From NCBI GenBank assembly GCA_032622095.1, contig CP136069.1, forward strand, positions 103,072,278-103,136,277: a stretch of DNA of 64,000 bases, written 5' to 3'. This stretch comes from Siphonodentalium dalli. Its lineage: Eukaryota > Mollusca > Scaphopoda > Gadilida > Siphonodentaliidae. Below the pieces are notes generated by a model, which was given only the letters and a program-made list of their open reading frames with translations, was not told the DNA's origin and ran no database searches. The translations under genes were made by a program, and so were the position numbers. Shown in pieces: positions 14,701 to 62,540 of the stretch; position 1 is the stretch's first letter, and every line of letters starts with the position of its first letter.

Positions 14701-15167
14701 GGTCGTTTTCCGTTTATTTCGAAATACTCAGAAACTGATTGCAGTAGGAACGCGAAATCTCTAGCGAATGTAGGCATCGAAGGTTTACTAGATATAATGG
14801 TATCCGGATTTCCGCCCAATGTTTCTTGGCGGAGTTATGGCCCTTTTGCGATTATTTTTCATTGTTATTATTATTATACTTGACACTTTTGTAATCACTA
14901 TTACTCGAAAAGTACAAGAAGTAGGACACCAAAACTTGGTAAGTAGGTTGGGGTACATGAGTTCTAACCATATGGCCCATAACGATTTTGTCCGCGCTTT
15001 CACCGAGGAGTTATCTCCCTTTATTTGAAAAAATGTCATTTTATTATCTCGGAAATTATAAGAAGCAGAGCATCGAAAATTAGACCGTATGCACATCTCG
15101 ATATGCACTACTGCCCACGGGCATAAAAACTTGTGTCCGCGCTTTCCCTGAAGAGTTACTGCCCATA
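2701..15167. repeat. Satellite array, short (~1434-bp) unit type
   Basis: Eight complete near-identical units follow a partial one. Using the 'acttgtgtccgcg' phrase as the start, units begin at 3652, 5086, 6523, 7958, 9392, 10826, 12260 and 13694, and a final partial unit starts at 15129. Lengths are 1433-1437 bp and differ mostly in A/T homopolymers. The array ends near 15167, where the 'gagttactgcccata' phrase runs into unrelated DNA. The units resemble the long type but lack one ~297-bp subunit. A 106-codon minus-strand frame and a 69-codon plus-strand frame recur once per unit. Two units break the former with the same 1-bp deletion, so I do not treat these as genes. Confidence 0.95.
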
Positions 15168-33009: not shown

Positions 33010-33790
33010 TCATTTCCTGGGGGCATTTAGCTTGCTTCGGAAGTGATCAATGTAGAAATCTTCCTTCCGGGTTCGGCGTATTCTGTTTGCTGAGAACAGT
33101 TTTTGGAATGGGAAGATCGAATATTCATTCTTTCCACATTCATCCAAATGTTCACTCAGTGCAATTTTGCGATATTCTGGTTGCTTTATCTGTTGTCTAT
33201 GGATCCGCGTTCTTTCTCGTAATTTATTGCCTGTTTCTCCGATATAACTTTCCGAACATCCATGACAGACAATACAATATATAATATCTTCCGAGTTACA
33301 GTCCATAGATATATTCGGATAGATTGTCATTCCATTTTTTAATGTCAGTGACCCTCCAGTGTGAAGATAATTGCACGTGTCACACCGTTTGTCACCACAT
33401 TTACTGACTATGTGATTTGGAATCCCATCAGTTGTGAACTTTGCTTTGGTCAATATTTTTTTCAGATTTTTCGGTTGGCGTTTGCTAGGTAGAATGTCAT
33501 CTGATTTTATTATAGAATTCATTTTTTCCACTTTTCTGTATGATGGGGAAGAGCTGTTTTGCAACTGTAGCCATATTAGGATGGTGAGGATTATGTGTGG
33601 AAATAATCGGAATTGGGTCTGGCTTTGGTTCTGGTGACCTCTCTGCGCGTAGCTCCGCGATTGGAATGGCTCTAGCGCGTTTTATGCCATCCTGTATTAG
33701 TTTCTGCGTATAGTTTTTTTTTTTTAAACAAAACATTTAGTTCAGAGAGTCTGTGATCACGTTGCTTGTTTTGGCTGACAATTGTGCATA
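33010..33790 (-). pseudogene. PLE linker plus GIY-YIG endonuclease domain, inverted copy
   Basis: The longest open part is 184 codons (33010-33564). It carries the linker 'SDDILPSKRQPKNLKKIL', a cysteine cluster KCGDKRCDTCNYLHTGG, then the GIY-YIG nuclease: 'IIYCIVCHGCSESYIGET', 'RERTRIHRQQI' and the terminal 'RKEDFYIDHF'. The nuclease domain is complete and intact here, unlike in the plus-strand copy. Upstream, the frame continues after one shift near 33530 (HHPNMATVAKQLFPIIQKS) and another shift in a poly-T/A run near 33715. There is no reverse transcriptase on this strand, so it cannot act alone. The role is known for the PLE family: target nicking for retrotransposition. Confidence 0.85.
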
Positions 33791-33814
33791 CACGTCTTGC
33801 AAGACAGTAAGGAA

Positions 33815-36146
33815 CAAGTAGCTAGCGTCGACCACAAAACGGACAAAACAATAGAGCAAACCGTTTTTATGACAAGGCTACTCTCAGGTCACAAGGATCA
33901 AACAAAACAGAATGTATCAAGCAAAGAACCAATATGCGGCATACATATAGATCCTAAAATAATAAACCTATCAAACAGAACACTGACTGAAGTCGAAATT
34001 AAGGTTCTTGAACGTGGCTTAAAATTCACCCCAACACCAAAGAAAGATACAAGAGAATTTGAAACAGATGTCTTGGAATTTGGTAGAAAATTACGACTTA
34101 TTGAATACCATAATGGAAAGGAATTCACATCAGATGGATCATAAGTTCGTAATAAATCAAACAGAACACCGTCAAAAGGACGTGACCCCCATCTAGATGG
34201 GTACATAGAAACATTGGCTAAAATTCCCCCTACGGAAATAACTGTGAAGCAAAATATCTCAAAAAGAGAAAACGATGCTTTAAAATGCTTACAACAGGAC
34301 AAAACCATCATAATCAAGGAGGCGGATAAAGGGGGAGCCATAGTCATCATGAACACAATATATTATCAACATCTAATAGAAGAATTACTCCAAAACAAAG
34401 AATTCTACGTAGAAAATAATGAAAATATCGACAAACGAACGATTAAAAAAATAAAGAATCTTCTAAGAACATTTCCAAATTGTACAACAGAAAAAGAAAG
34501 AGACTATCTCATAAAATTTGAATACCACAGCAGTATCATATACGGTCTTCCAAAAATACACAAGAGTAAACAAATACAAGAAGCCATCAAACTTCAGAAC
34601 AACTCCTATGTCAAAATGGAAGAACCGACAGATCTCAAATTACGACCCATAATCGCTGGGTCATCGTGCCCAACAAATCGTTTGAGTAACTTTGTAGAAA
34701 TTATCCTCAAACCCCTCGGTGGAAAATTACCGAGCTTCCTCAGAGATGACATGGACTTTATCCGTAAATTACCACGTGAAATAAAAGAAGGGTCGAAACT
34801 AGTGAGCTGTGATGTTACAAATTTATATTCATTCACTTGGAAAGGACGCACTTATAATTTGGATGAAGGAACATAATGACATACTGGACCATCGCTTCAG
34901 TGAGGATTTTATTCTAAACGCAGTGAACATCGTTTTAGAAAATAATAATTTTTTCTTTGATGAGCGATATTTCCTCCAAGTTAAAGGTACTGCTATGGGT
35001 ACAAAAATGGCCCCAACCTACTCAAATTTAGTGATGGGATATCTCGAACACCAACTGTATATACACACAAAGGAAACTTTCCCGACTAACATCAGTGACC
35101 ATATTATCCACACCTGGAAAAGATATCTGGATGACTGCTTTATTATTTGGGAAGAATCTGAACTTTTGAATTCACTTCATCCATCAATCAAATTCACATC
35201 AGAACGGGGCCGTGAGAAATTGCCCTATCTAGATGTACTTGTTTTGGCTGACAAAAACAAATTACAAACGGATATATTCTACAAAATAACAGATACACAT
35301 CAATATCTAGACTTCCGTTCGTGTCACCCGTCGCATACTAAGCGCAACATTCCTTACTGTCTTGCAAGACGTGTATGCACAATTGTCAGCCAAAACAAGC
35401 AACGTGATCACAGACTCTCTGAACTAAATGTTTTCTAAAAAAAAAAAAACTATACGCAGAAACTAATACAGGATGGCATAAAACGCGCTAGAGCCATTCC
35501 AATCGCGGAGCTACGCGCAGAGAGGTCACCAGAACCAAAGCCAGACCCAATTCCGATGATTTCCACACACAACGCTCACCATCCTAATATAGCTACAGTT
35601 GCAAAACAGCTCTTCCCCATCATACAGAAAAGTGAAAAAATGAATTCTATAATAAAATCAGATGACATTCTACCTAGCAAATGCGAACCGAAAAATCTGA
35701 AAAAAATATTGACCAAAGCAAAGTTCACAACTGATGGGATTCCAAATCACATAGTCAGTAAATGTGGTGACAAACGGTGTGGCACATGCAATTACCTTCA
35801 CACTGGAGGGTCACTGACATTAAAAATGGAATGACAATCTATCCGAATATATCTATGGACTGTAACTCGGAAGATATTATATATTGTCTGTCATGGATGT
35901 TCGGAAAGTTATATCGGAGAAACAGGCAATAAATTACGAGAAAGAACGCGGATCCATAGACAACAGATAAAGCAACCAGAATATCGCAAAATTGCACTGA
36001 GTGAACATTTGGATGAATGTGGAAGGAATGAATATTCGATCTACCCATTCCAAAAACTGTTCTCAGCAAACAGAATACGCCGAACCCGGAAGGAAGATTT
36101 CTACATTGATCACTTCCGAAGCAAGCTAAATGCGCCCAGGAAATGA
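33815..36146 (+). pseudogene. Penelope-like reverse transcriptase/GIY-YIG polyprotein, multiply disrupted
   Basis: Domain order follows Penelope-like elements. The N-terminal 'NLSNRTLTEVEIKVLERGL' region comes first (about 33960-34060). The RT core follows: LRPIIAGSSCPTNRLSNF near 34640, motif A DVTNLYS near 34810, motif B GTAMGTKMAPTYSN near 34990, catalytic YLDDC near 35130 and LPYLDVLV near 35220. The cysteine cluster and GIY-YIG nuclease end at a TGA at 36144-36146. Disruptions seen are an in-frame TAA at 34142-34144, a frameshift just after motif A (about 34833), one in the poly-A run at 35439-35450, a single-base loss near 35823, and a few-base loss near 35880 relative to the inverted copy. 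The N-terminus is cut at the junction with the inverted arm. Confidence 0.88.
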
Positions 36147-40790: not shown

Positions 40791-42022
40791 AAATCATCAT
40801 CAATGTTCCTGTTTTTCTCGATTTTTTAAATGGAAATATACCAGTTACAAATTTAGTTGCACTTTTTTGTAGACAAAACAGAAGCACGGATGATTTTCAC
40901 TTAGCTCAATACAAACTCATCATCTACTTGTTTTTACATGTTGGGCTGTTGTGACATGGTGAATTACATTTCAATTGAGCCTTGAAACATTTACATTTGG
41001 CAGTCATGCATGTCCCCTTACAATTACATTTCTTAAATCCTTGACCACCTGTTGCAGATTGGTCCCTGACTGCAGAGCATAGAGGGAGAATCTTTGTTTG
41101 GCAGATGTGATCGGTAGTCAAAAGTATCTCCGGGCACAAATCAAATTGGTTGCGAGAATACTTTTCGCTCAGAATGCCTGATTTGACAGCGATTGTGTAT
41201 AAGTCTCTGTCGAGGTTGGCAACGATGTGCCGGACAGGCCAATCCGAGCTTCACAGCCGAATACAGCTGAATAAGGCGAACATTTAATGCCAGAATGATG
41301 AGCTGAATTCTTCTGGAACTGAATAAACTTCAAACCGTTAGGCCAGTCTGTTGTTTCATTGTCAGCGAGCCAAGCCACTAGCATATCCTTGATATCACCA
41401 TTGGCCCTTTCAACTGAACCTTGGCTTTGGGGGTGTCGTGGTTTTCCGTGAACCATGGTCAACTCTGGCCACATATCCTTCAGATCTTTGATGACATTAG
41501 CCGTGAACTCGGAACTCGGATCCATTGTCACTCTGCAGAATGGCTGGTGCTCCGAACATAAGGAAGATATCCAGAAGCTGGAAGGCTACCTCCGTTGCTC
41601 TTTTGCTTTTTAACGGTCTCAGTATACAGAATTTGGTGAGGTGGTCTTGATACACCATTATCCTCTTATAGTCGGAGACTGCTAGGGATTGCATATCAAT
41701 CAAATCCACATGACATCGACTCGTAAACTCTTTCGTCAGAATTGGTCGCACCACCACCCCTTTCGTCTTCGGCCGAACCCTCTTTTTCTGGCACTCCATA
41801 CACAACGATTTGAAGAGCTCTAGAGCTTTTGTTGAGATGTTTGCGTATTTTTTCTGTAATTCTTTTATCATTCTGTCGCGGCCGCCATGACCAGTAGCGA
41901 GGTGAGCTCGTTGAATGACATCAAACGTTTCTTCCATTGTGACGAAATATAGAATAGGTTCCTCGGGGTTGCTACGTCGTTTGATCAGTTTCTCGACATC
42001 ACCGCACTGCATGATTTCATAT

Positions 42023-45017: not shown

Positions 45018-45736
45018 TCTATACTATATATTTTGAGACTTCCGTATATCTATATATATATATATATATAGCTATAGCTATATATATATATATATATGTA
45101 CTTTATAGAATCGAAAACGGCTGGCTCGATTGAGTTCAAACTTCCCATCTAAGGGTAAAAACCCACGAATACCGTAGTTGTCGCGTTTTGGAGAAGCTCT
45201 GAGCACCCTTTATCCACTCCCAAATCACCGCAAAGGCACGGCGCGTGGGTTAATCAAGTGATTATTTAATGAGCGTTTGTTTTTGACGCATCGCTATAAA
45301 GAGCGTCTGTTTACCATTCAACTTATTAGCATCTGCAGAGAGATATACGGGAACATTGAGTGGTTTCCTATGCGGGGAGATTTATTGGATGCCATAGTAC
45401 TCTTACAACATCATTGTTATAGTATGTATGACACTTAGGTCAGGGCTTAGGGGGGGGGGTAGTTATAGGCATAATGCTTCTCAGAAATCCCGGTTAAAAA
45501 CCAACACTCACAATTTCGTATTTACGCAAAGGTATACGGGAACAGCAGCGTGATTGTGACTGTGGGTCATGTATGTGTGGGACCCCTTTTCCTATAGGAC
45601 TATGGCTCCATAGTATGTCAACGCCCCCTTTCCTATGCTTTGTATGTGTATATATGGCCCCATGGTATGGTAACGCCCCCTTTAATTATTATATATCGCT
45701 CCTCCTTCCCACGTAATTTCTGGAACATTTTTATTG

Positions 45737-45754
45737 TTCTGGAAAATTCTGGAA
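45737..45754. promoter_or_regulatory. Heat-shock-element-like tetramer (left arm)
   Basis: Reads TTCtgGAAaaTTCtgGAA, four contiguous alternating nGAAn units, within a cluster of further TTCnnGAA pairs. HSF binds such arrays. Function here is inferred, and the array may have arisen by local duplication of a short repeat. Confidence 0.4.
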
Positions 45755-46984
45755 CATTTTTTTTGTTCTGGAACATTTTTATTGTTCTGGAACAATCTGG
45801 AACATTTTTTTTCTAGTAAAATCCATAATGTATTCGTGTAATAAAATTTATATTTGTCTACGGCCTCTTTAAAATTATACAACTGTAAAGTCCCAATGTT
45901 AATTTCACACGGTACACACATTGGGTATCATAGCATCTATCTATTTACCGTTCTCCACGCATAGAATATAGGCAGTTAAAATCATTTATTTTTGTCTTCT
46001 ACAACATTCTAGTAAATCCATAATGTATTCGTGTAAGACACTTCATACTCGCATATGGCCATTTAAACTAACAAGGCTGAAGGCAGACGCACCTTTGTCT
46101 GTTAATTAACTTCTAAGCACGGGGGAACACAATGCACCTACTGCAGGGCACAGAGCTCTCAAGCTAATAACACAACATATAACCATTCTGGAACATTCTC
46201 CATACCGACGGGGATAAAGCGGTGAAACAGATTAATGAGATTATGCATTATACCACTAGGTGATAAAACATTTAAGCCTTTGAATAAATCCATACCGATG
46301 GGGATAAAGCGGTGAAACAGATTAATGAGATTATGCATACCACTAGGTGATAAAACATTTAAGCCTGCACTAATTTGAATAAAAAAACATTCAGGGTGAA
46401 TTTGCACATATTGGTTAGGAAAAATAAAATGCCTTTCTAGCTGCCTCTGAAACAATTAATAAAATTAAAATAATCTACAAAGTTCTCAGCACGTGGGAGA
46501 CCATCTAGGTATTAAATACACATCTAACTCCAAGCAGCCAACATATGCTTACAGAGCATAACCCATGCAATTTAACTCTCACAAAAGTTATACCGCTAGC
46601 GGAATGAACCCTGAATACATACTGACTCCCCATTATGTATCCCTCCTAATGGTCAACTGTTATGGTACAATTGATTAAATCATCACTAACATTAGTTAAG
46701 CTTTTTCTCTAAATACCCCTTTAATATCTGTAATCGAACTATTAGGAATCAATCAACGCCTTGCCAATAGATATTTGAACATTTCAAATAAAGTAAATCC
46801 TACACACAATATCTCGAAGATTCGTAATTAAACACATGTTTAAGTTATTTAATGCCACGATAGGTCTTTCATTCAAATGCATGCTCCTAATGGCTTCTGC
46901 ATCTGTGGAGACTGAGAGATAAACAAAATTAATGTTTCTGTAGAAATTAAGGTTTTCTAGTGTGTCACTACTTCAGATATGGTT

Positions 46985-48900
46985 CAAATAGCATACAAAT
47001 CACCGCATTTTGGTCACATACCTTAAAGGTACACGTCATTTGTGCATTTAAACCTAATTCCGCGTATACATCAATAAAAACGCTCTTTATTTTCCAAATA
47101 GTTTGAATGTACCTAGTTTTAACAAACATTTATGCAATCTACATGCTTTCATTCATATAAAATTTACGAAATGTATCTTAAACGACAACAACATTGTAAC
47201 AGACTGGCCACTTACCTTCAATTTATAGGTCATATTAGCCTGTACATTTATGGGAGACAGACATACATAATATAATGCATTGGCACAGTGTTAGTGATAA
47301 TAATAAGGTGTCATTACTTCAGAAATGGTTCATATAGCATACTATTGTACCCGTGGTCACGTACATTAAATGAACACGTCACTTAAGCATTTAAACCTAA
47401 CTCAGTGTATCTATCAATAAAACGCTCTTTATTTTCAAATTTGTCTGAATTGTACTAAATTTACATTTAAAATCAAGCATTTAAACCTAGTTCCGTCTAT
47501 CCGTAAATAAAAAACGCTCTTTATTTTCAAAATTTGTCTTAATGTCCATCGTTTACTAAATTTATATTTAAAATTAAGCATTTAAACCTAATTCCGTCTA
47601 TCCGTAAATAAAAAACGCTCTTTATTTTCAAAATTTGTCTTAATGTCCATCGTATACTAAATTTATATTTAAAATTAAGCATTTAAACATAATTCATCGT
47701 ATCTATCAATAAAACGCTCTTTATTTTCAAAAACGTCCATAGTTTTAACAAAGATTTTGCAATCTACATGCTTTAATTCATATAAAATTACCCAGTGTGT
47801 GTTAGACAACAAAATTATAACATATTGGCTTTCAAGTTACATATGCATGTACATTCGATGCACGAGGAAACATTGTAGGAAATGAAGGTATTGATGTGTC
47901 ACTACTTCAGAAATTGTTCATACAATTGACCGTATTTTGATCACATACCTTAAAGGTACACGTCACTTTGTCTATAAACAGACAATACATTACACGTAGG
48001 GTTAAACATGTCCATCGTAGTAAGCTTATTTACTTCAGAAATGGTTCATATAGCATACTATGCACCCGTGGTCACATACCTTAAAGGAACACGTCACTTA
48101 GGCATTTAAACATAACTCAGTGTATCTATCAATAAAACGCTCTTTATTTTCAAAATTGTCTTAATTGTACTAAATTTACATTTAAAATCAAGCATTTAAA
48201 CCTAATTCCGTCTATCCGTAAATAAAACACACTCTTTATTTTCAAAATTTGTCTTAATGTCCATCGTTTACTAAATTTATATTTAAAATTAAGCATTTAA
48301 ACATAATTCATCGTATCCATAAATAAAAAACGCTCTTTATTTTCAAAAACGTCCATAGTTTTAATAAAGATTTTTGCAATCTACATGCTTTCATTCATAT
48401 AAAATTACCCAGTGTGTGTTAGACAACAACATTATAACATATTGGCTTTCAAGTTACATATGCATGTGCATTCGATGCACGAGACAACATTGTAGGAAAT
48501 GAAGGCATTGATGTGTCATTACTTCAGAAATTGTTCATACAATTGACCGTATTTTGATCACACACCTTAAAGGTACACGTCACTTTTGTCTATAATCACA
48601 CAAAACATTACACATATAGGGTTCAACATGTCCACCGTAGTAAGCTTATTTACTTCAGAAATGGTTCCAATAACATAGTATTGTACCGGTGGTATCACAT
48701 ACCTTAAAGGTACACGTCACTTTTGTCTATAATCAGACAATAAATTACACGTAGGGTTAAACATGTCCACCGTAGTAAACTTATTTACTTCAGAAATGGT
48801 TCCAATAGCATAGTATTATACCCGCGGGGTCACATACCTTAAAGGTACACGTCATTTGTGTCTATAATCAGACAATACATTACGCATAGGGTTCAACATG
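46985..48900. repeat. Iterated-motif region, left arm
   Basis: Inverted counterpart of 58540-60455. It mixes units headed by CGCTCTTTATT (complement of AATAAAGAGCG), 'accttaaaggtacacgtca' phrases and 'acttcagaaatggtt' phrases at irregular spacing. No coding region is apparent. Confidence 0.85.
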
Positions 48901-49953
48901 GTCACCGAAGCAAACTAATCCAAAAGCAACGAACACCCATTACTGAGTCCCGCTGTTACACACAACACAATTACTCGGGATTAAGGTCTTCTAGTAATGA
49001 GTTATGGTTGTATACTTTAGAAATGGTACCTATAGCATAATATTGTACCCCATTGATGCACATCACGTTTCATGTGAATTACATGAGCAGGTAACTCAAT
49101 TCTCTGCATATTATATACAGTGTTATTTAGCTTAGAAATGGTTGTTATTTTATATCAATATACCAGTTTATGTCACAGACAAAATGCGTACTCACTCTTC
49201 ACATATACTAATATGTAAGCATTTGTATCATTTAGAATGTCAAAATATGGTCTACGTCAGTCGTATTAGCTATATATGGCCACTTACCGTTCAAGTTATA
49301 ACCCCATTAAAACTATGCTTCAAATGTAAATTATATGTAACTTGAATATGATCGGTCCCCAGGCCCTTTTTAGGTCATAGGTTCTAACCGACCATCGTTC
49401 ATACTCGAACGCGTGTGTATATGATAGCTATGGTAATGGTAGAGAAATCTAGAGAGCTACGTAGACCCACTGCCTACATCAATATATATATACGATATAC
49501 ATGCACTGGTCGCAATGGGTTCCCGTTACTAGCCTATAGACATGAAGTATTAAAGTTATACACCTTCATCAGCGCGCTCTTAATGAGTTTTGAATTGGCA
49601 TATGGGTACGAATCCAAACCATTCCGATGTAATTTATCGGAATGCCAATCATAACCATCTGCACAGAGAAAGCTAGTGGGGACGATACACACTGTTTGCG
49701 TAATTGACTAGACACATTGAGGTAAAGAAGCACCCTGATGTATCAAAGGTATATTTCAAGGATTTTTAATCGGCAGCCATTATTGAATATATCTTTGTTG
49801 GGCATGGTCATATGCACCACTGTGTTTCATATAAAACAAAGAACTAGTGGGTGGTGAAATCACCGAAGGCCAATATTCCCGATGGTAAGTTAATTTTAGG
49901 ATATGGGATACATTTATGACTAAATCGGTTATAGGAAATGAGGTAAATTGCAC

Positions 49954-49959
49954 TTTATT
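49954..49959 (-). promoter_or_regulatory. Polyadenylation signal AATAAA for the 198-aa gene
   Basis: AATAAA on the minus strand about 140 bases after the stop codon at 50098. The same signal is at 57481-57486 in the other arm. Confidence 0.5.
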
Positions 49960-50097
49960 ATTTAAAAGGAATAACGCTATACAAGCTTAAACACACAAAC
50001 CATGAGTTTTATCAACTTATTACGTATAGCATATTTGGAGTTTAGTTATGTTCATCAAACACCGGTACTTGACACCTCTGTCTGTATATTTTTGTTA

Positions 50098-50694
50098 TTA
50101 CGATTGGGTCCCGTGTTCACCCTTTTTAGTTGTAAGCGAATAGTCTCCATAGCTCCAAATCGTTCCGAATGTCCAAACTAATTCACTATCTAATTCTGAA
50201 ATAGGTTTAGTTGTGCTTACAATGTAATCCAAAACTAGTTGTTCATTGAACATCTTTTCAATCGTGAAAATAGGACAAGGTTCCCTCATAATAATGTAAC
50301 CATAAATTGATGTAACTTCTTCGAATTCCAAACTATAGTCATTAAAAACCGTGCTACGGTATTCAGCGAAGCGGGAAAAGTTATCACCGATAAGTACACG
50401 AATCTCATATATGTCTTTTTTAGTAATACCACTAAATATCCAACACTCAGAAAACAGTTGATCCAAAGTATCCAGTAAGATATCTGTTTCAAATTCTGAT
50501 CTCTCCATCAAAGCATTCAATCTCTTTCTACCATCATCAAAATTTCCTTCTAGAAGTTCCGTAATTATTAATTTACTCTCCCTTAAGAACCATGTATGTT
50601 GTAATTCTGTTTTCATGTCTCCATGTATCGTTGACGCGTTAACTAACTCCTTGTAAATTTTCTCAAGCATTTCTGTGGGTAATATTTCCTCCAT
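50098..50694 (-). CDS. Unrecognised 198-aa protein of the palindrome (intact copy)
   Basis: Intact frame of 198 codons, the longest in the palindrome, starting MEEILPTEMLEKIYKEL and ending TTKKGEHGTQS. I do not recognise the family. It is acidic and probably soluble: no signal peptide, no convincing membrane span, few cysteines. The N-terminal LPTEMLEKIYKEL loosely resembles the first helix of F-box or other helical adaptor domains, but this is weak. The ATG at 50694 is the first in frame and lies about 170 bases below a TATA-like box (50861-50868). An AATAAA follows the stop, so the gene has plausible promoter and 3'-end signals and no visible intron. The other arm carries a frameshifted copy. 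Function is unknown; linkage to the mobile palindrome suggests that it belongs to the element rather than to the host. Confidence 0.6.
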   Translation of the reverse strand: MEEILPTEMLEKIYKELVNASTIHGDMKTELQHTWFLRESKLIITELLEGNFDDGRKRLNALMERSEFETDILLDTLDQLFSECWIFSGITKKDIYEIRVLIGDNFSRFAEYRSTVFNDYSLEFEEVTSIYGYIIMREPCPIFTIEKMFNEQLVLDYIVSTTKPISELDSELVWTFGTIWSYGDYSLTTKKGEHGTQS

Positions 50695-50860
50695 AATTCC
50701 TAATTTACAAAACCATCTGTTTATTCGAGTAAATCCGCTAACTCACATGTCATTGGCCATGAGTTCCTCATATAATTAACACAATCGGTTGTTCGTACCC
50801 ATACCTAGTGAGCTTTTGATCTATAATAGCTATCGGTAAAGTATTTAGTTCTTATTATAA

Positions 50861-50868
50861 TATTTATA
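50861..50868 (-). promoter_or_regulatory. TATA-like box for the 198-aa gene
   Basis: TATAAATA on the minus strand next to an ATTGG (reverse CCAAT) word, about 170 bases upstream of the ATG. Both are mirrored in the right arm. Confidence 0.45.
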
Positions 50869-52877
50869 ACCAATCAAAATCCGTTGCTGAATTTAGCTAT
50901 ACGAGGACAAACGGAATGATAACATCCGTTCAACAACTTGGTATTCCAGTCATAGTCATAGTTCATTTCATATTATTACTCTAAAATCTCCATTACATGG
51001 AGAAAATAAAGAGCCCATCTGATGTAAACTAGTATATAAGTACTTAGTGATTTATTTTCATCAATTATATGTATTGTTACTCCTATAAATATAGTCTGTT
51101 ATACAGAGGATACATCGCCCACGTGACAGTATCGTGTCGCGAAAGGTCTATACAAGTATATAAATGCGCGTCAGGTTTATGTATATGTCCCTGTTTCTTA
51201 AAGCAAATCCAGTACATATACGTGCGTTAAGACACGTGCAATTGCCACTAGTAAATCACGTATAAAATCTCTTTACTGCATAGTTAAACTGTTGAGTTTT
51301 CACACGTATTCTATGTCGTTTTTTATGGACTATATACGTGGTATATGTCAGTATATACACGAATGTAATGTATAATCACGTATTAATTTCATATATTCTT
51401 CTCAAAACAACTCAGCACAACGCATCAATTCTGATGACTATGGCGGTTCAAACAGTGTACACTTTCAGTGTTGTTACAGTTTAATGCATACCATACTCAT
51501 TTATGCATAATAACGCGGGTCTACATCGTTGCTATATACCTATATACGTCCATATTTCTTAAAGTATAGTATCTATACGTACATCATGGCGTATATTAAA
51601 CCCCCTTTCACTGGTAAATCACGTATAAACGCTCTTTATTGTATAGTCAACTAACCATTTCGACATACACGCTGCTCTGTGGTGGTCTGTTGTGTCTTAC
51701 CATTATACCATTATATGTAGAAGGTAATGTGGTCAAATATGTATAAGTCTGATTTTGTGTCAATGTGCCTGTTATTAATCTCATCAATTGGGTCGTTTAT
51801 AAGTCGTCAAACATGATGATTTCTAATCATCTAATAGGTATTATAAAAAATGCCTACTTCACAAATATTTTGAGTGCATTTCAGTGTATGTTTCGTGCTC
51901 TGTAAAAACGTGATTTGACCGCTAGTGATGTAGTGAAATAACGTATTTTATAGTTGTCAAATACGTACTAAAAATATTGTCAATTTATGACTCATCTAAT
52001 GAATTTTCCACACCTAGTGTCTACAATATGTTTATATATTGTGACTCATTACTACGATTGCAGTATGTCCACGTATGTCAGATATTACATAACCTTGATA
52101 ACTATGTTTAGAAATACCTGGTATATGAGATCATATTGTAGCTTACAGAGACTGGAATGCGACTTGCATCTACCATCACGTGCGTTCGAATGAAGTTACA
52201 TGTACGATATGAGCCATTATATGTGTCGATGAGGTGTTATATCAGTATATTCATGCAATATTCGTAAATGACAGCAACATATCTTTTCCCTCCCATTATC
52301 AAGCGAGATTTTGTGGTTAGCTGACAAACATGGCATTTTCGAATATATATAGCCTATTGGACACTTACTTCAAATGCTAAAATTGCCTCTTCAAAATAGT
52401 TAAAAGTACACATTTTTATTTCGAATTTCATTGTTTACGGTTAATTTCCTGTTATGAAATTGGTCCTTTTATAAATGCTTAATACGCAGTTACAAAAAGC
52501 CCTAATTGACAAACATTTTAAGCGCTATTATGACTATATTTGACGAATAAAAAAAACGCCATTTGACGTAGTACAACAACGTGAAATGACTACTTTTTTA
52601 AACGCGAATTTGAAACAAAACTAATATACAAAAGAATTTTAAATTAAAATAATAAGTTTGGTTGATGTATAGTTTGGTTGACAGCATTTTCACACACAGA
52701 AGCGTTATGATACAGTTTCACCACTCACACAGAAGCGATCTTATACGGTGTAGCGGTATGTTACAGAGTTATCGTTCTTTTCGAGGCTAAAAAAAGCGCA
52801 GGCCGGCCCCCTCCCTCTCCCCCGTTTTAAAAGGGGCGGTGTTAAGGGGAGCGATCGAGCGTCACGAAAAAATGTCA

Positions 52878-54564
52878 TAGAAGAAAAGTATAAGGCAGAG
52901 GAAATGGATGGGGGAAACGACACAGTATGAGGGGTAATGGGGTGTGGGAAATGGGGATGTGATGATATGACCGTGTATTAATTGGAGATGATAATGGATT
53001 AGGTAGTGTACACTGTTCATGGTTTTTAATATATGAATTAACATATAGTGAAGAGCTTAGGAGGCTAGGAAAAGCCACTCAATATAGGTTTATACATGTA
53101 GATGGTGCAAAAAGGGGGAGGAGATGGGGAGAGCGAGAGGCAAGAAATTGGGGGGAAGGGTATAATTTGGAGAAAACATTGAGGTGTAAGCCTTACTTTC
53201 CTAGGAAAACATTGGGATTGTTGTGGGTAGAACAGAGGTAAAATAAGAGTTGTATAAAATGGAAAAGGGAGACATGAAAAGAATGAAAGGTGCTTATGGG
53301 AAAAAGGGTAAAGGGGCAGTGGGAGAGTGTACAGCGGTGTATAGCGAAGAGTATAGGAGGCTAAGAAAAGCCACTCAATATAGGTTTATACATGTAGATG
53401 GTGCAAAAAGGGGAAGGAAATGGGGAGAGCGAGAGGCAAGAAATTGGGGCAGAAGGGTATAATTTGGAGAAAACATTGAGGTGTAAGCCTTACTTTCCTA
53501 GGAAAACATTGGGATTGTTGTGGGTAGAACAGAGGTAAAATAAGAGTTGTATAAAATGGAAAAGGGAGACATGAAAAGAATGAAAGGTGCTTATGTGAAA
53601 AGGGTAAAGGGGCAGTGGGAGAGTGTATAGAGGTGTATAGCGAAGAGTATAGGAGGCTAAGAAAAGCCACTCAACAGAGGTTTATACATGTGTAAAAAGG
53701 GGAAGGCGATGGGGAGAGTGAGATGCAAGTAAATGGGAGCAGAAGGGTTTAATTTGGAGAAAACATTGAGTAGTAAGCATTACTTTCCTAGGAAAACATT
53801 GGGATTGTTGTGGGAAGAACAAAGTGTTTAGAGGTACAAAAGGGGAAGGTAAAAAAGAATGAAAGGTGGTTATGTGGAGAAAGGTAAATGGGGTATAGGG
53901 TAAAATAAATAGAGGTGTATAGCAGAGAGCTGGGGTGGGGAACATGTACATAATTAAAGTAGATGAGATAAGAATAATCATTGAGTATATACCTAAATCA
54001 TATGAAATGTGGGGGTTTTGCGTTGGAAGGAGAGGGGTAACCATGATTGCAGACAGTAATTAGGGGGTAAGAGCCGGCAATGGGGCTTAAATGGTATAGA
54101 AAATAAAATGGCACCAGGTAGAGGAAAGCAGAGGGAGTGAGAGAAGAGGGCCATAGGGGTAAAAGTATAACTAAATCATATGAACTGGGGTGGAGAGGAG
54201 AAGAGATGGGTAAAAGGGGACATATATACATATATATAATTTAGGTGTAAGCAGTTGGTCGAAAACATAGGGGATGTAACGCGACAAAAGAGTAAACATA
54301 AAGCAGAGAATGAATGGAAAGTATTACGTATATGTGTATGAACTTGGGGGTTTGTGTATTAAGGATACAGTAGTAAAAAGGAGAACACATGCAAAATGGT
54401 GTAAACTTATAGGAAATGACAGGGACATAGGGCAAAGAACATGAATGATGCACAAAGTAGCATAAAGATGATGGCTAAGAAGTTCGGAAGAGAGGGGGTT
54501 ATATTGGGTAAGGGTAAAAGTAGAATTGTGGTAAATATGTAGAAGGGTTATGTGTAAAATAGGG
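52878..54564. other. Purine-rich centre of the palindrome
   Basis: This 1.69-kb single-copy centre has a strong G+A bias on the plus strand, unlike the AT-rich arms. Its left half is three 296-bp tandem units. An ATG-less open frame of 91 codons (52966-53241) reads SEELRRLGKATQYRFIHVDG and later YNLEKTLRCKPYFPRKTLGL. Part of it persists in unit 2, where a 1-base insertion breaks it. It is unrecognised and may be only a product of the purine bias. Minus-strand frames rich in S, P, L and F are the complement of the same bias. Confidence 0.75.
53050..53880. repeat. 296-bp tandem repeat, three units
   Basis: Units start with 'gaagagcttaggaggc' at 53050, 'gaagagtataggaggc' at 53347 and the same phrase at 53643. 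Units 1 and 2 are nearly identical; unit 3 is more diverged and loses similarity near 53880. Confidence 0.88.
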
Positions 54565-55789
54565 TGACATTTTTTCGTGACGCTCGATCGCTCCCCTTAA
54601 CACCGCCCCTTTTAAAACGGGGGAGAGGGAGGGGGCCGGCCTGCGCTTTTTTTAGCCTCGAAAAGAACGATAACTCTGTAACATACCGCTACACCGTATA
54701 AGATCGCTTCTGTGTGAGTGGTGAAACTGTATCATAACGCTTCTGTGTGTGAAAATGCTGTCAACCAAACTATACATCAACCAAACTTATTATTTTAATT
54801 TAAAATTCTTTTGTATATTAGTTTTGTTTCAAATTCGCGTTTAAAAAGTAGTCATTTCACGTTGTTGTACTACGTCAAATGGCGTTTTTTTTATTCGTCA
54901 AATATAGTCATAATAGCGCTTAAAATGTTTGTCAATTAGGGCTTTTTGTAACTGCGTATTAAGCATTTATAAAAGGACCAATTTCATAACAGGAAATTAA
55001 CCGTAAACAATGAAATTCGAAATAAAAATGTGTACTTTTAACTATTTTGAAGAGGCAATTTTAGCATTTGAAGTAAGTGTCCAATAGGCTATATATATTC
55101 GAAAATGCCATGTTTGTCAGCTAACCACAAAATCTCGCTTGATAATGGGAGGGAAAAGATATGTTGCTGTCATTTACGAATATTGCATGAATATACTGAT
55201 ATAACACCTCATCGACACATATAATGGCTCATATCGTACATGTAACTTCATTCGAACGCACGTGATGGTAGATGCAAGTCGCATTCCAGTCTCTGTAAGC
55301 TACAATATGATCTCATATACCAGGTATTTCTAAACATAGTTATCAAGGTTATGTAATATCTGACATACGTGGACATACTGCAATCGTAGTAATGAGTCAC
55401 AATATATAAACATATTGTAGACACTAGGTGTGGAAAATTCATTAGATGAGTCATAAATTGACAATATTTTTAGTACGTATTTGACAACTATAAAATACGT
55501 TATTTCACTACATCACTAGCGGTCAAATCACGTTTTTACAGAGCACGAAACATACACTGAAATGCACTCAAAATATTTGTGAAGTAGGCATTTTTTATAA
55601 TACCTATTAGATGATTAGAAATCATCATGTTTGACGACTTATAAACGACCCAATTGATGAGATTAATAACAGGCACATTGACACAAAATCAGACTTATAC
55701 ATATTTGACCACATTACCTTCTACATATAATGGTATAATGGTAAGACACAACAGACCACCACAGAGCAGCGTGTATGTCGAAATGGTTA

Positions 55790-56460
55790 GTTGACTATAC
55801 AATAAAGAGCGTTTATACGTGATTTACCAGTGAAAGGGGGTTTAATATACGCCATGATGTACGTATAGATACTATACTTTAAGAAATATGGACGTATATA
55901 GGTATATAGCAACGATGTAGACCCGCGTTATTATGCATAAATGAGTATGGTATGCATTAAACTGTAACAACACTGAAAGTGTACACTGTTTGAACCGCCA
56001 TAGACATCAGAATTGATGCGTTGTGCTGAGTTGTTTTGAGAAGAATATATGAAATTAATACGTGATTATACATTACATTCGTGTATATACTGACATATAC
56101 CACGTATATAGTCCATAAAAAACGACATAGAATACGTGTGAAAACTCAACAGTTTAACTATGCAGTAAAGAGATTTTATACGTGATTTACTAGTGGCAAT
56201 TGCACGTGTCTTAACGCACGTATATGTACTGGATTTGCTTTAAGAAACAGGGACATATACATAAACCTGACGCGCATTTATATACTTGTATAGACCTTTC
56301 GCGACACGATACTGTCACGTGGGCGATGTATCCTCTGTATAACAGACTATATTTATAGGAGTAACAATACATATAATTGATGAAAATAAATCACTAAGTA
56401 CTTATATACTAGTTTACATCAGATGGGCTCTTTATTTTCTCCATGTAATGGAGATTTTAG
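55790..56460. repeat. Diverged ~360-bp repeats, right arm
   Basis: The phrases 'aataaagagcgtttatacgtg' (shortened: AATAAAGAGCG plus ttatacgtgattta) at 55801 and 'agtaaagagattttatacg' near 56164 head two related stretches. Both include 'ttaagaaa(ta/ca)ggacatata'-like DNA. They are mirrored in the left arm at about 50980-51650. Confidence 0.55.
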
Positions 56461-56572
56461 AGTAATAATATGAAATGAACTATGACTATGACTGGAATAC
56501 CAAGTTGTTGAACGGATGTTATCATTCCGTTTGTCCTCGTATAGCTAAATTCAGCAACGGATTTTGATTGGT

Positions 56573-56580
56573 TATAAATA
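56573..56580 (+). promoter_or_regulatory. TATA-like box, right-arm gene copy
   Basis: TATAAATA preceded by ATTGG, 167 bases before the ATG at 56747. Mirror of 50861-50868. Confidence 0.45.
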
Positions 56581-56746
56581 TTATAATAAGAACTAAATAC
56601 TTTACCGATAGCTATTATAGATCAAAAGCTCACTAGGTATGGGTACGAACAACCGATTGTGTTAATTATATGAGGAACTCATGGCCAATGACATGTGAGT
56701 TAGCGGATTTACTCGAATAAACAGATGGTTTTGTAAATTAGGAATT

Positions 56747-57342
56747 ATGGAGGAAATATTACCCACAGAAATGCTTGAGAAAATTTACAAGGAGTTAGTT
56801 AACGCGTCAACGATACATGGAGACATGAAAACAGAATTACAACATACATGGTTCTTAAGGGAGAGTAAATTAATAATTACGGAACTTCTAGAAGGAAATT
56901 TTGATGATGGTAGAAAGAGATTGAATGCTTTGATGGAGAGATCAGAATTTGAAACAGATATCTTACTGGATACTTTGGATCAACTGTTTTCTGAGTGTTG
57001 GATATTTAGTGGTATTACTAAAAAAGACATATATGAGATTCGTGTACTTATCGGTGATAACTTTTCAGCTTCGCTGAATACCGTAGCATGGTTTTTAATG
57101 ACTATAGTTTGGAATTCGAAGAAGTTACATCAATTTATGGTTACATTATTATGAGGGAACCTTGTCCTATTTTCACGATTGAAAAGATGTTCAATGAACA
57201 ACTAGTTTTGGATTACATTGTAAGCACAACTAAACCTATTTCAGAATTAGATAGTGAATTAGTTTGGACATTCGGAACGATTTGGAGCTATGGAGACTAT
57301 TCGCTTACAACTAAAAAGGGTGAACACGGGACCCAATCGTAA
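56747..57342 (+). pseudogene. Frameshifted copy of the 198-aa palindrome gene
   Basis: Identical in layout to the left-arm gene up to the sequence for IGDNFS. There 'ttcccgcttcg' is replaced by 'ttcagcttcg' (net loss of one base near 57068), so the first frame ends after 135 codons with an unrelated tail. The original frame resumes to the same TTKKGEHGTQS end. The promoter-like and polyadenylation signals are retained. The copy was probably inactivated after the palindrome formed, although a sequencing error is possible. Confidence 0.7.
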
Positions 57343-57480
57343 TAACAAAAATATACAGACAGAGGTGTCAAGTACCGGTGTTTGATGAACATAACTAAAC
57401 TCCAAATATGCTACACGTAATAAGTTGATAAAACTCATGGTTGGTGTGTTTAAGCTTGTATAGCGTTATTCCTTTTAAAT

Positions 57481-57486
57481 AATAAA
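57481..57486 (+). promoter_or_regulatory. Polyadenylation signal, right-arm gene copy
   Basis: AATAAA 139 bases after the stop codon, followed by 'gtgcaattt'. Mirror of 49954-49959. Confidence 0.5.
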
Positions 57487-58539
57487 GTGCAATTTACCTC
57501 ATTTCCTATAACCGATTTAGTCATAAATGTATCCCATATGCTAAAATTAACTTACCATCGGGAATATTGGCCTTCGGTGATTTCACCACCCACTAGTTCT
57601 TTGTTTTATATGAAACACAGTGGTGCATATGACCATGCCCAACAAAGATATATTCAATAATGGCTGCCGATTAAAAATCCTTGAAATATACCTTTGATAC
57701 ATCAGGGTGCTTCTTTACCTCAATGTGTCTAGTCAATTACGAAAACAGTGTGTATCGTCCCCACTAGCTTTCTCTGTGCAGATGGTTATGATTGGCATTC
57801 CGATAAATTACATCGGAATGGTTTGGATTCGTACCCATATGCCAATTCAAAACTCATTAAGAGCGCGCTGATGAAGGTGTATAACTTTAATACTTCATGT
57901 CTATAGGCTAGTAACGGGAACCCATTGCGACCAGTGCATGTATATCGTATATATATATTGATGTAGGCAGTGGGTCTACGTAGCTCTCTAGATTTCTCTA
58001 CCATTACCATAGCTATCATATACACACGCGTTCGAGTATGAACGATGGTCGGTTAGAACCTATGACCTAAAAAGGGCCTGGGGACCGATCATATTCAAGT
58101 TACATATAATTTACATTTGAAGCATAGTTTTAATGGGGTTATAACTTGAACGGTAAGTGGCCATATATAGCTAATACGACTGACTTAGACCATATTTTGA
58201 CATTCTAAATGATACAAATGCTTACATATTAGTATATGTGAAGAGTGAGTACGCATTTTGTCAGTGACATAAACTGGTATATTGATATAAAATAACAACC
58301 ATTTCTAAGCTAAATAACACTGTATATAATATGCAGAGAATTGAGTTACCTGCTCATGTAATTCACATGAAACGTGATGTGCATCAATGGGGTACAATAT
58401 TATGCTATAGGTACCATTTCTAAAGTATACAACCATAACTCATTACTAGAAGACCTTAATCCCGAGTAATTGTGTTGTGTGTAACAGCGGGACTCAGTAA
58501 TGGGTGTTCGTTGCTTTTGGATTAGTTTGCTTCGGTGAC

Positions 58540-60455
58540 CATGTTGAACCCTATGCGTAATGTATTGTCTGATTATAGACACAAATGACGTGTACCTTTA
58601 AGGTATGTGACCCCGCGGGTATAATACTATGCTATTGGAACCATTTCTGAAGTAAATAAGTTTACTACGGTGGACATGTTTAACCCTACGTGTAATGTAT
58701 TGTCTGATTATAGACAAAAGTGACGTGTACCTTTAAGGTATGTGATACCACCGGTACAATACTATGTTATTGGAACCATTTCTGAAGTAAATAAGCTTAC
58801 TACGGTGGACATGTTGAACCCTATATGTGTAATGTTTTGTGTGATTATAGACAAAAGTGACGTGTACCTTTAAGGTGTGTGATCAAAATACGGTCAATTG
58901 TATGAACAATTTCTGAAGTAATGACACATCAATGCCTTCATTTCCTACAATGTTGTCTCGTGCATCGAATGCACATGCATATGTATCTTGAAAGCCAATA
59001 TGTTATAATGTTGTTGTCTAACACACACTGGGTAATTTTATATGAATGAAAGCATGTAGATTGCAAAAATCTTTATTAAAACTATGGACGTTTTTGAAAA
59101 TAAAGAGCGTTTTTTATTTATGGATACGATGAATTATGTTTAAATGCTTAATTTTAAATATAAATTTAGTAAACGATGGACATTAAGACAAATTTTGAAA
59201 ATAAAGAGTGTGTTTTATTTACGGATAGACGGAATTAGGTTTAAATGCTTGATTTTAAATGTAAATTTAGTACAATTAAGACAATTTTGAAAATAAAGAG
59301 CGTTTTATTGATAGATACACTGAGTTATGTTTAAATGCCTAAGTGACGTGTTCCTTTAAGGTATGTGACCACGGGTGCATAGTATGCTATATGAACCATT
59401 TCTGAAGTAAATAAGCTTACTACGATGGACATGTTTAACCCTACGTGTAATGTATTGTCTGTTTATAGACAAAGTGACGTGTACCTTTAATGTATGTGAT
59501 CAAAATACGGTCAATTGTATGAACAATTTCTGAAGTAGTGACACATCAATACCTTCATTTCCTACAATGTTTCCTCGTGCATCGAATGTACATGCATATG
59601 TAACTTGAAAGCCAATATGTTATAATGTTGTTGTCTAACACACACTGGGTAATTTTATATGAATTAAAGCATGTAGATTGCAAAATCTTTGTTAAAACTA
59701 TGGACGTTTTTGAAAATAAAGAGCGTTTTATTGATAGATACGATGAATTATGTTTAAATGCTTAATTTTAAATATAAATTTAGTATACGATGGACATTAA
59801 GACAAATTTTGAAAATAAAGAGCGTTTTTTATTTACGGATAGACGGAATTAGGTTTAAATGCTTAATTTTAAATATAAATTTAGTAAACGATGGACATTA
59901 AGACAAATTTTGAAAATAAAGAGCGTTTTTTATTTACGGATAGACGGAACTAGGTTTAAATGCTTGATTTTAAATGTAAATTTAGTACAATTCAGACAAA
60001 TTTGAAAATAAAGAGCGTTTTATTGATAGATACACTGAGTTAGGTTTAAATGCTTAAGTGACGTGTTCATTTAATGTACGTGACCACGGGTACAATAGTA
60101 TGCTATATGAACCATTTCTGAAGTAATGACACCTTATTATTATCACTAACACTGTGCCAATGCATTATATTATGTATGTCTGTCTCCCATAAATGTACAG
60201 GCTAATATGACCTATAAATTGAAGGTAAGTGGCCAGTCTGTTACAATGTTGTTGTCGTTTAAGATACATTTCGTAAATTTTATATGAATGAAAGCATGTA
60301 GATTGCATAAATCTTTGTTAAAACTAGGTACATTCAAACTATTTGGAAAATAAAGAGCGTTTTTATTGATGTATACGCGGAATTAGGTTTAAATGCACAA
60401 ATGACGTGTACCTTTAAGGTATGTGACCAAAATGCGGTGATTTGTATGCTATTTG
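58540..60455. repeat. Iterated-motif region, right arm
   Basis: AATAAAGAGCG starts at 59099, 59292, 59715, 59814, 59915, 60007 and 60349, with a variant at 59200. Most copies are followed by 'ttttatt(ta/ga)' and a 'gg(a)ttaggtttaaatgctt'-type phrase, at intervals of about 90-100 bp or multiples. Interleaved are 'gtgacgtgtacctttaaggta' (shortened: tgacgtgtacctttaagg) and 'aaccatttctgaagtaa' phrases. The region is a mosaic of at least three short repeat families. Confidence 0.85.
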
Positions 60456-61057
60456 AACCATATCTGAAGTAGTGACACACTAGAAAACCTTAATTTCTAC
60501 AGAAACATTAATTTTGTTTATCTCTCAGTCTCCACAGATGCAGAAGCCATTAGGAGCATGCATTTGAATGAAAGACCTATCGTGGCATTAAATAACTTAA
60601 ACATGTGTTTAATTACGAAGCTTCGAGATATTGTGTGTAGGATTTACTTTATTTGAAATGTTCAAATATCTATTGGCAAGGCGTTGATTGATTCCTAATA
60701 GTTCGATTACAGATATTAAAGGGGTATTTAGAGAAAAAGCTTAACTAATGTTAGTGATGATTTAATCAATTGTACCATAACAGTTGACCATTAGGAGGGA
60801 TACATAATGGGGAGTCAGTATGTATTCAGGGTTCATTCCGCTAGCGGTATAACTTTTGTGAGAGTTAAATTGCATGGGTTATGCTCTGTAAGCATATGTT
60901 GGCTGCTTGGAGTTAGATGTGTATTTAATACCTAGATGGTCTCCCACGTGCTGAGAACTTTGTAGATTATTTTAATTTTATTAATTGTTTCAGAGGCAGC
61001 TAGAAAGGCATTTTATTTTTCCTAACCAATATGTGCAAATTCACCCTGAATGTTTTT

Positions 61058-61241
61058 TTATTCAAATTAGTGCAGGCTTAAATGTTTTATCACCTAGTGG
61101 TATGCATAATCTCATTAATCTGTTTCACCGCTTTATCCCCGTCGGTATGGATTTATTCAAAGGCTTAAATGTTTTATCACCTAGTGGTATAATGCATAAT
61201 CTCATTAATCTGTTTCACCGCTTTATCCCCGTCGGTATGGA
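61058..61241. repeat. Direct ~90-bp duplication within a 98-codon frame
   Basis: The segment from 'ttattcaaa' through 'ccgtcggtatgga' occurs at 61058-61151 and again at 61152-61241. The second copy has a 3-base 'ata' insertion and lacks an 11-base 'ttagtgcag'-type stretch. A 98-codon frame (60985-61281) stays open across both, giving two GLNVLSPSG...NLFHRFIPVGM repeats. It is mirrored at 46159-46455. Too little evidence to call it a gene. Confidence 0.6.
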
Positions 61242-61685
61242 GAATGTTCCAGAATGGTTATATGTTGTGTTATTAGCTTGAGAGCTCTGTGCCCTGCAGT
61301 AGGTGCATTGTGTTCCCCCGTGCTTAGAAGTTAATTAACAGACAAAGGTGCGTCTGCCTTCAGCCTTGTTAGTTTAAATGGCCATATGCGAGTATGAAGT
61401 GTCTTACACGAATACATTATGGATTTACTAGAATGTTGTAGAAGACAAAAATAAATGATTTTAACTGCCTATATTCTATGCGTGGAGAACGGTAAATAGA
61501 TAGATGCTATGATACCCAATGTGTGTACCGTGTGAAATTAACATTGGGACTTTACAGTTATATAATTTTAAAGAGGCTGTAGACAAATATGAATTTTATT
61601 ACACGAATACATTATGGATTTTACTAGAAAAAAAATGTTCCAGATTGTTCCAGAACAATAAAAATGTTCCAGAACAAAAAAAATG

Positions 61686-61703
61686 TTCCAGAATTTTCCA
61701 GAA
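61686..61703. promoter_or_regulatory. Heat-shock-element-like tetramer (right arm)
   Basis: TTCcaGAAttTTCcaGAA inside a run of 'aatgttccagaa' repeats at 61636-61720. Mirror of 45737-45754; function inferred only. Confidence 0.4.
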
Positions 61704-62540
61704 CAATAAAAATGTTCCAGAAATTACGTGGGAAGGAGGAGCGATATATAATAATTAAAGGGGGCGTTACCATACCATGGGGCCATATATACACATACAA
61801 AGCATAGGAAAGGGGGCGTTGACATACTATGGAGCCATAGTCCTAAAGGAAAAGGGGTCCCACACATACATGACCCACAGTCACAATCATGCTGCTGGGA
61901 ACAAGTGCTTTCCTATTTTTAGAACGCAACACATGATACCAAACAAAATTACGTCGCGTTGGTGATGGCGTTCACGACGGGATTAATTGACTGTCCGCTC
62001 TTTGCGAGGATGGGGTTCACGACGGGATTAACTTTGCAAGGACTATTGACCATCTCGTAAGGGTGGACAACCTCTGTCAGGGGCTGCTTAATGGCCACGG
62101 GCAGGTTAAAAAAAAGCATACCTCTTCTGGGTCTGGGCGTGTATAGACATGAGCGTGTTGTGTTCCTAAGAACGCGGAGCGTGTTGTGTTCCTAAGAACG
62201 CGGATCGGGTAAGTTTTTCCGCCCTAGGTGAGCTCAAACTTCGTATATAAGTGTAAAAACACACGGGGATCGTCCACTTCGCATTGTGTGAAACATTCTT
62301 ATGTCTGTCGTTCCTAGGAACGGGGGAATTTTTCATCGGGTCAGTCTTAACCTTCAAACGGGTACCCACAAATGATATATTGTGACCCCGACATGACATT
62401 GACCTTGAAAATTATCAATTCAAGGTCAAATCGGGTAAAATATTGAAAAACCCAATATTAACTCATTGAAAAACACAAACAAAACATAAAACATTGTCAT
62501 GTTTCTGACCAAGCACGCCAGTGGCGGGCTAACCTGCTAG

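What the first reader, a model, noticed from the sequence alone, without database searches (positions are those of the whole stretch)
45545..61895. 16.35-kb palindrome flanked by a 7-bp direct repeat: candidate mobile element with giant inverted arms
Inverted arms of ~7.33 kb with a unique 1.69-kb centre, bounded on both sides by GGGAACA (8-mers CGGGAACA and TGGGAACA). A perfect 7-bp repeat exactly at both arm tips is what a target-site duplication would look like. The arms contain no known transposase, polymerase or integrase, and the one sizeable gene is unrecognised. Arm divergence (frameshift, TAC/TAA, substitutions) and a distinct centre argue against a read-chimera artefact.
Basis: partly seen in the sequence, partly recalled or inferred. 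Interest (0 to 1): 0.88.

Follow-up and report, generated by a model that had tools for sequence, protein, structure and literature searches.

The report
Giant palindromic Polinton-derived mobile elements
A 16-kb near-perfect DNA palindrome proves to be one copy of a family of mobile elements that insert like virus-like Polintons but carry almost no genes, each copy being two mirror-image arms that seem to be copied from one another.

Summary
The palindrome is real: arms 45544-52877 and 54565-61896 (99.69% identical), centre 52878-54564. It is one of 33 elements with paired ends identified in a 2.23-Gb genome. The true end is (AGC)2 and the duplicated target is 6 bp (GGGAAC), not 7. Of 33 elements, 30 have an exact 6-bp duplication, against 0 of 1056 mismatched flank pairs. 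A 6-bp duplication with short repeats at the ends is the Polinton/Maverick signature. All 14 copies read in full are palindromes; 13 of the 20 others carry mirrored genes. Arms hold gene X (as here) or a PC4-domain gene Y; both lie side by side in an ordinary Polinton of this genome (X 55% identical). Some centres hold a Polinton-type packaging ATPase. Of 24 Polinton ORFs compared with the 14 copies, only X, Y and ATPase match; no polymerase, integrase or capsid gene does. Arms of one element differ by 0.23-0.44% in 10 of 11, much less than elements differ from each other, and module swaps appear in both arms at once. Best reading: a non-autonomous Polinton satellite whose arms are renewed by fold-back copying (inferred). 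No helper with (AGC)2 ends was found. New variant of a known kind.

The parts
45538..45543 (.). left copy of the 6-bp target duplication, GGGAAC
45544..52877 (+). left arm, 7334 bp; tip (AGC)2 = AGCAGC
47453..47732 (+). tandem repeat, 101-bp unit, in the left arm (mirror copy 59708-60057)
48556..48916 (+). tandem repeat, 135-bp unit, in the left arm (mirror copy 58524-58883)
50098..50694 (-). gene X, 198 aa, open; homologue of a gene of ordinary Polintons in this genome (55% identity, E 8e-74)
52878..54564 (.). centre, 1687 bp, 70% purine on the + strand (C only 7.5%), not mirrored; conserved at 92-99% in 9 of the 14 copies read
53044..53821 (+). tandem repeat, 296-bp unit, in the centre
54565..61896 (-). 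right arm, 7332 bp, mirror of the left
56747..57151 (+). right-arm copy of gene X, broken: frame-shifted, so the open frame ends early; the left-arm copy is open
61897..61902 (.). right copy of the 6-bp target duplication, GGGAAC

Best explanation
It is a non-autonomous, Polinton-derived mobile element (a satellite) whose whole body is a giant palindrome. SHOWN: a family with common (AGC)2 ends inserts and duplicates 6 bp of target; the arms keep one Polinton gene (X, or the PC4-like Y), some centres keep a Polinton-type packaging ATPase, and the replication, integration and capsid genes are missing; the two arms of one element are nearly identical and change modules together. INFERRED: a Polinton elsewhere in the genome supplies protein-primed polymerase and integrase. 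The (AGC)2 ends serve as jumping-back origins. A displaced single strand of such an element can snap back into a 7-kb hairpin with a 1.7-kb loop, and fold-back (copy-back) synthesis or mismatch repair in that hairpin makes one arm from the other before the element re-inserts. So an arm change is either lost or mirrored at each round.
For: 6-bp target duplications: 30 of 33 exact (4 of these need one extra AGC unit at one end), 2 of 33 with 5 of 6, 1 none; mismatched flank pairs 0 of 1056 at 6 of 6 and 5 of 1056 at 5 or more (the control was run without the AGC shift). Vertebrate Mavericks have 6-bp duplications and doubled AGT ends, and the end repeats are read as jumping-back sites (adenovirus and phage phi29). 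Gene X 55% identical to X of Polinton P952; Y has a PC4 domain (1.5e-13) and matches P952's Y, next to X (3e-22). 24 ORFs of two Polintons against 14 palindromes: only ATPase, X and Y match; 0 of 69 PolB genes lie inside the 33 elements. 14 of 14 fully read copies palindromic. Arms 0.23-0.44% different in 10 of 11, sisters with 100% support in 8 of 9 X-type elements, first 30 bases of the two ends identical in 25 of 33 against a mean of 1.5 and a maximum of 8 in 10,000 shuffles. E13 combines a Y module like E3's (97.7%) and an inner part and centre like E1's (98.8%) in both arms alike. Between clades dN/dS of X is about 0.38, so X has been kept by selection.
Against: No autonomous Polinton with (AGC)2 ends was found: P1312 starts AGTAGT, P952's ends were not reached. 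Only 69 of 1596 PolB candidates were scored. Arm identity could also come from gene conversion in the chromosome after insertion. E7 (arms 1.04% different, recombinant ends) and C1:188123945 (ends differ at 7 of 30 bases) kept unlike arms. C2:182270925 has X in one arm and Y in the other, so unlike arms can insert. Among close copies dN/dS is not clearly below 1 (few changes). One copy of a second X-bearing palindrome family showed neither AG ends nor a 6-bp duplication. No extrachromosomal or hairpin form was observed.
Confidence: 0.75

Rival explanations
1. The elements are Polinton derivatives, but the arms are made alike after insertion, by gene conversion in the chromosome, as in sex-chromosome palindromes.
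For: Arms agree better within an element than between elements; palindromes are known to convert (recalled).
Against: E7 and C1:188123945 kept unlike ends next to (nearly) intact 6-bp duplications, and C2:182270925 kept X in one arm and Y in the other. Differences in most elements are spread along the arm rather than cleared in blocks.
Confidence: 0.17
2. Another class of cut-and-paste or foldback transposon that has picked up Polinton genes.
For: No PolB, integrase or capsid gene in the 14 copies read; foldback elements also have long arms with inner tandem repeats (recalled; tandem repeats).
Against: 6-bp duplication, doubled trinucleotide ends that sometimes gain a unit, and three different Polinton genes in one family.
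Confidence: 0.07
3. Assembly or read artefact (missed hairpin adapter, chimeric amplification).
For: Near-perfect palindromes are a typical long-read artefact (recalled); C4:140631333 has mirrored flank for at least 90 bp.
Against: A unique centre, flanks that are not mirrored, and the same ends with different 6-bp duplications at 30 of 33 places; genes X, Y and ATPase in mirror pairs at many places while 69 PolB genes give 0 opposite-strand pairs.
Confidence: 0.01

Closest known systems
Polinton/Maverick (vertebrate Mavericks, PMC8097293, passages and section 7 seen)
   Same: 6-bp target duplication, short repeats at the ends ((AGT)2 there, (AGC)2 here), similar total size (12.7-24.6 kb there, 11.5-20.6 kb in 32 of 33 here), genes X and Y and packaging ATPase shared with Polintons of this genome
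   Different: no PolB, integrase or capsid gene; inverted arms of about 5.1-7.7 kb in the copies measured against 46-1447 bp there; most of the element is mirrored
Adenovirus defective genomes with large inverted end duplications (recalled, not found)
   Same: protein-primed linear DNA with palindromic derivatives of one genome end that keep both origins
   Different: those are short-lived by-products of infection; here the palindromes are inherited, diverged into subfamilies and share a kept gene
Foldback and Galileo-type transposons (recalled)
   Same: long inverted arms with inner tandem repeats and a variable middle
   Different: different target-site length (recalled) and no Polinton genes (recalled)
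MITEs and other deletion derivatives (recalled)
   Same: ends kept, enzymes lost, moved in trans
   Different: here the element is as large as its presumed parent and keeps one or two intact genes

Membership tests
Polinton/Maverick | 6-bp target-site duplication | tested here: met
   30 of 33 exact, 2 of 33 five of six, 1 of 33 none; control 0 of 1056
Polinton/Maverick | terminal inverted repeats starting with a short AG-type repeat | tested here: met
   (AGC)2 in 33 elements, 4 with a third unit at one end; reference motifs
[quoted passage not shown]
   PolB ORFs (in pieces) of two Polintons: no match in 14 copies; 0 of 69 scored PolB genes inside 33 elements
Polinton/Maverick | retrovirus-type integrase | tested here: not met
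   integrases of both Polintons: no match in 14 copies
Polinton/Maverick | capsid genes | tested here: not met
   probable capsid ORFs of both Polintons (named by resemblance; no Pfam match): no match in 14 copies
Polinton/Maverick | packaging ATPase | tested here: inconclusive
   absent from this copy; present in the centre of E3 (Pox_A32, 1e-6); 16 of 16 close relatives of it lie between mirrored Y genes
Non-autonomous Polinton derivative | an autonomous partner with the same ends | tested here: inconclusive
   none found; P1312 ends AGTAGT, P952 ends not reached; capsid-gene and centre searches did not complete
Foldback transposon | transposase of the foldback or Galileo class | not tested
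   no transposase model was searched against all frames; the only large ORF of this copy has no significant Pfam match

The most novel reading that the evidence does not exclude
A self-copying palindromic form of genome: the satellite's single strand folds into a multi-kilobase hairpin, one arm repairs or templates the other at each round, and this lets Polinton genes persist in separate palindromic segments (an X segment, a Y-plus-ATPase segment and others) that travel with helper Polintons, so that the set behaves like a multipartite virus-like system.
Probability: 0.25. Interest if true: 0.93.

Novelty: new variant of a known kind. Interest (0 to 1): 0.82.

Why it matters
Polinton relatives are thought to replicate by protein priming, but their replication forms are little known. 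A family of satellites that is palindromic throughout is a natural record of fold-back synthesis by such a system, and a rare case where long palindromes are stably inherited in many copies in a large genome. The mirrored exchange of modules makes a testable prediction about how arms are renewed. It also shows that annotation looking for short terminal repeats and enzyme genes can miss a whole class of large elements.

Tried and rejected
A 7-bp duplication was rejected in favour of 6 bp after comparing copies. Assembly artefact was rejected (different duplications at 30 of 33 places). Finding gene X elsewhere: the search for homologous proteins gave no hit at E 0.001 for X or Y, and viral contigs gave none for X, for an X alignment or for the P952 integrase. 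AlphaFold models of X had mean pLDDT 48 and 45 and were not used for a fold search. Rfam found nothing in the window, ARAGORN no tRNA. The ends of a second X-bearing palindrome family were walked by small probes; the one copy gave no AG end and no 6-bp duplication. Paper searches: (listings only) showed no paper on palindromic Polintons; searches failed, of which 82 was repeated as 120 and 84 in altered form as 121; the foldback search was not repeated. The library lacks most subscription journals. Rows dropped before counts: E4 (degraded left end) from the 33 target-site tests; E4, E5 (nested insertion) and E14 (arm duplication) from the 11 arm-divergence counts; E4 from the arm tree.
Full report
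OBSERVATION. The reported palindrome is present. The two arms, 45544-52877 and 54565-61896, differ by 21 substitutions and 2 single-base gaps (99.69%), around a 1687-bp centre, 52878-54564. The element has no N; the window's only gap is at 2601-2700.

A FAMILY WITH DEFINED ENDS. The first 1001 bases match many places, mostly in inverted pairs 6-20 kb apart (40 of 241 candidates scored). The exact end AGCAGCATGNTTGTGACT occurs 74 times, the reversed control 0 times; 62 of the 74 form 31 inverted pairs 4.7-20.6 kb long. With E1 (this copy, one base different in the left end) and E13, 33 elements have both ends. I read flanks of all 33: 30 have an exact 6-bp duplication, four of them only if one extra AGC unit is allowed at one end; two (E6, E7) match at 5 of 6; one (C4:140631333) has none. 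Pairing each left flank with other elements' right flanks gave 0 of 1056 at 6 of 6 and 5 of 1056 at 5 or more, without the AGC shift. For E1 the duplication is GGGAAC.

ALL COPIES READ ARE PALINDROMES. Fourteen copies were read in full, E1 and 13 others (E2-E10, E12-E14, E17), picked from the best matches to E1's end. All 14 have giant inverted arms. E4 has a degraded left end, E5 a 7.1-kb insertion in one arm, E14 a direct duplication within one arm. For the 20 other elements the positions of genes X and Y were used: 13 have the gene in mirror orientation in both halves, one (C2:182270925) has X in one half and Y in the other, two show a single copy, and four had no gene among the scored hits. 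The mirror offsets are often equal within a few bases (for example 4406/4401 and 2948/2947), though in some they differ by hundreds.

GENES. The arms of ten of the 14 copies carry X (198-201 aa, this copy included) and those of four carry Y (188 aa). Y has a PC4 domain (1.5e-13). X has no family (best match E 0.069, below cut-off). The centre of E3 carries a poxvirus-A32-like packaging ATPase (1e-6). The genome holds many Polinton polymerases (PF03175; 69 of 1596 candidates scored). I read two such places. Polinton P952 (C1:212057000-212076999) has polymerase, an integrase with chromodomain (3.2e-15 and 8.6e-8), a probable capsid ORF (by resemblance, no Pfam match), and, side by side, homologues of X (55%, 8e-74) and Y (PC4 5e-14; 31%, 3e-22). 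P1312 (C3:61229000-61248999) has 525-bp terminal repeats starting AGTAGT. Of 24 ORFs of 150 aa or more from these two places, four match the 14 palindromes (two ATPase pieces: E3; Y: E3, E5, E12, E13; X: the other ten); polymerase, integrase and probable capsid ORFs match none, and 0 of 69 PolB genes lies inside the 33 elements. In this copy the left-arm X is open and the right-arm X is broken by a frameshift; open copies exist elsewhere.

MIRROR PAIRS GENOME-WIDE. X: 150 of 1533 candidates scored; 49 divergent pairs, 0 convergent, 5 same-strand. By identity, 48 of 64 (90% or more), 2 of 9, 46 of 61 (62-68%) and 2 of 16 (below 62%) hits are in pairs. Y: 150 of 711 scored; of 46 genes at 90% or more, 40 form 20 convergent pairs; of 65 genes at 45-53%, 3 divergent pairs; of 30 at 40-45%, 9 divergent pairs, 8 with gaps of 8.29-8.39 kb and one of 8.83 kb. 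ATPase: 130 of 3173 scored; the 16 close relatives are unpaired and all 16 lie between mirrored Y genes; 82 of the other 114 form 41 divergent pairs, none inside (AGC)2 elements. Control: 69 polymerase genes gave 0 opposite-strand neighbours within 26 kb. The intended capsid control did not complete. So several palindrome families exist. One copy of the 62-68% X family was checked by probes: perfect mirror at 2, 3 and 4 kb outside the gene, tip at about 4.2 kb, but no AG end and no 6-bp duplication. One ATPase pair mirrors to 1.5 kb outside the gene but not at 2 kb. Their relation to Polinton insertion is therefore not shown.

THE ARMS BELONG TOGETHER. Within elements the arms differ by 0.23-0.44% in 10 of 11 and 1.04% in E7; between elements the shared parts are about 88-98% identical. 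In a tree of 18 arms the two arms of one element are sisters with 100% support in 8 of 9. The first 30 bases of the two ends are identical in 25 of 33 and differ by one base in 6 more, with 29 distinct versions among all ends; shuffled partners gave a mean of 1.5 and a maximum of 8. E13 has, in both arms alike, a Y module 97.7-98.1% like E3 and an inner part plus centre 98.8% like E1. Swapping a module in both arms at once is most easily explained if one half is the template for the other. Exceptions are E7, C1:188123945 (unlike ends) and C2:182270925 (X and Y halves), which show that unlike halves do get inserted. C4:140631333 is mirrored together with at least 90 bp of host flank (57 of 60) but not at 2 kb, as if half an element and its flank had been copied back.

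SELECTION. X of E1 and E14 are 63% identical with dN/dS 0.38, and 0.41 between E1 and P952. Among close copies there are few changes and the ratio is 0.24-0.73 or undefined, with several pairs showing only amino-acid changes. So X was kept by selection between subfamilies; recent constraint is not shown.

MECHANISM. Maverick end repeats are held to allow jumping back during protein priming (PMC8097293, passages), as in adenovirus with its doubled 3' GTA (PMC4974454, passages). (AGC)2 with an occasional third unit fits. The missing polymerase and integrase must then come from elsewhere (inferred). A palindromic strand can fold into a hairpin whose closed arms restore the double-stranded origin; copying or repair within that hairpin would keep arms alike (inferred). 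The strongly purine-biased centre (70% purine, 7.5% C in this copy), conserved in nine of 14 copies, would be the loop; a spacer may also keep the palindrome stable in the chromosome (inferred).

NOVELTY. The ends and target site fit Polintons, but three core genes tested are absent, so this is not filed as a Polinton but as a Polinton-derived palindromic satellite. No paper on such elements appeared (listings), in a library that lacks most subscription journals.

Noticed in passing
window 2701-15167: Array of about 1.43-kb tandem units, 99.6-99.7% alike, next to a 100-base gap at 2601-2700 and a diverged relative at 1-2600.
   Followed up: no
window 33010-35438: ORFs with weak GIY-YIG (1.9e-4) and reverse transcriptase (1e-3) matches, both under the curated cut-off: possibly a Penelope-like retroelement (name recalled).
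   Followed up: no
window 41497-42012: Piece of a retrovirus-type integrase (Integrase_H2C2 2.2e-5, rve 3.3e-5, both under cut-off).
   Followed up: no
window 45345-45355: ATACGGGAACA occurs here as well as at the left edge of the element (45534-45544), about 190 bp away.
   Followed up: no
G000:C4:140631333-140643808: The host flank is mirrored too (57 of 60 bases at 31-90 bp outside the tips, not at 2 kb): half-element plus flank looks inverted and duplicated.
   Followed up: partly
G000:C2:182270925-182283441: Asymmetric element with gene X in one half and gene Y in the other, with an intact CGCCAT duplication.
   Followed up: partly
G000:C1:96599269-96603073 and 40 similar pairs: ATPase genes in divergent pairs, most about 2.07 or 3.6 kb apart, not in (AGC)2 elements: another, shorter palindrome family.
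   Followed up: partly
G000:C1:195395286-195405142 and 8 similar pairs: Distant Y genes (44%) in divergent pairs, 8 of 9 with gaps of about 8.3 kb: probably a further palindrome family.
   Followed up: no
L029-L031 (C8:92760759-92781311): E14 has a direct duplication of several kb within one arm only, giving three copies of X.
   Followed up: partly
L015, L016 (C6:127680770-127699854): E5 has about 7.1 kb of unrelated DNA inside the right arm, probably a nested insertion.
   Followed up: no
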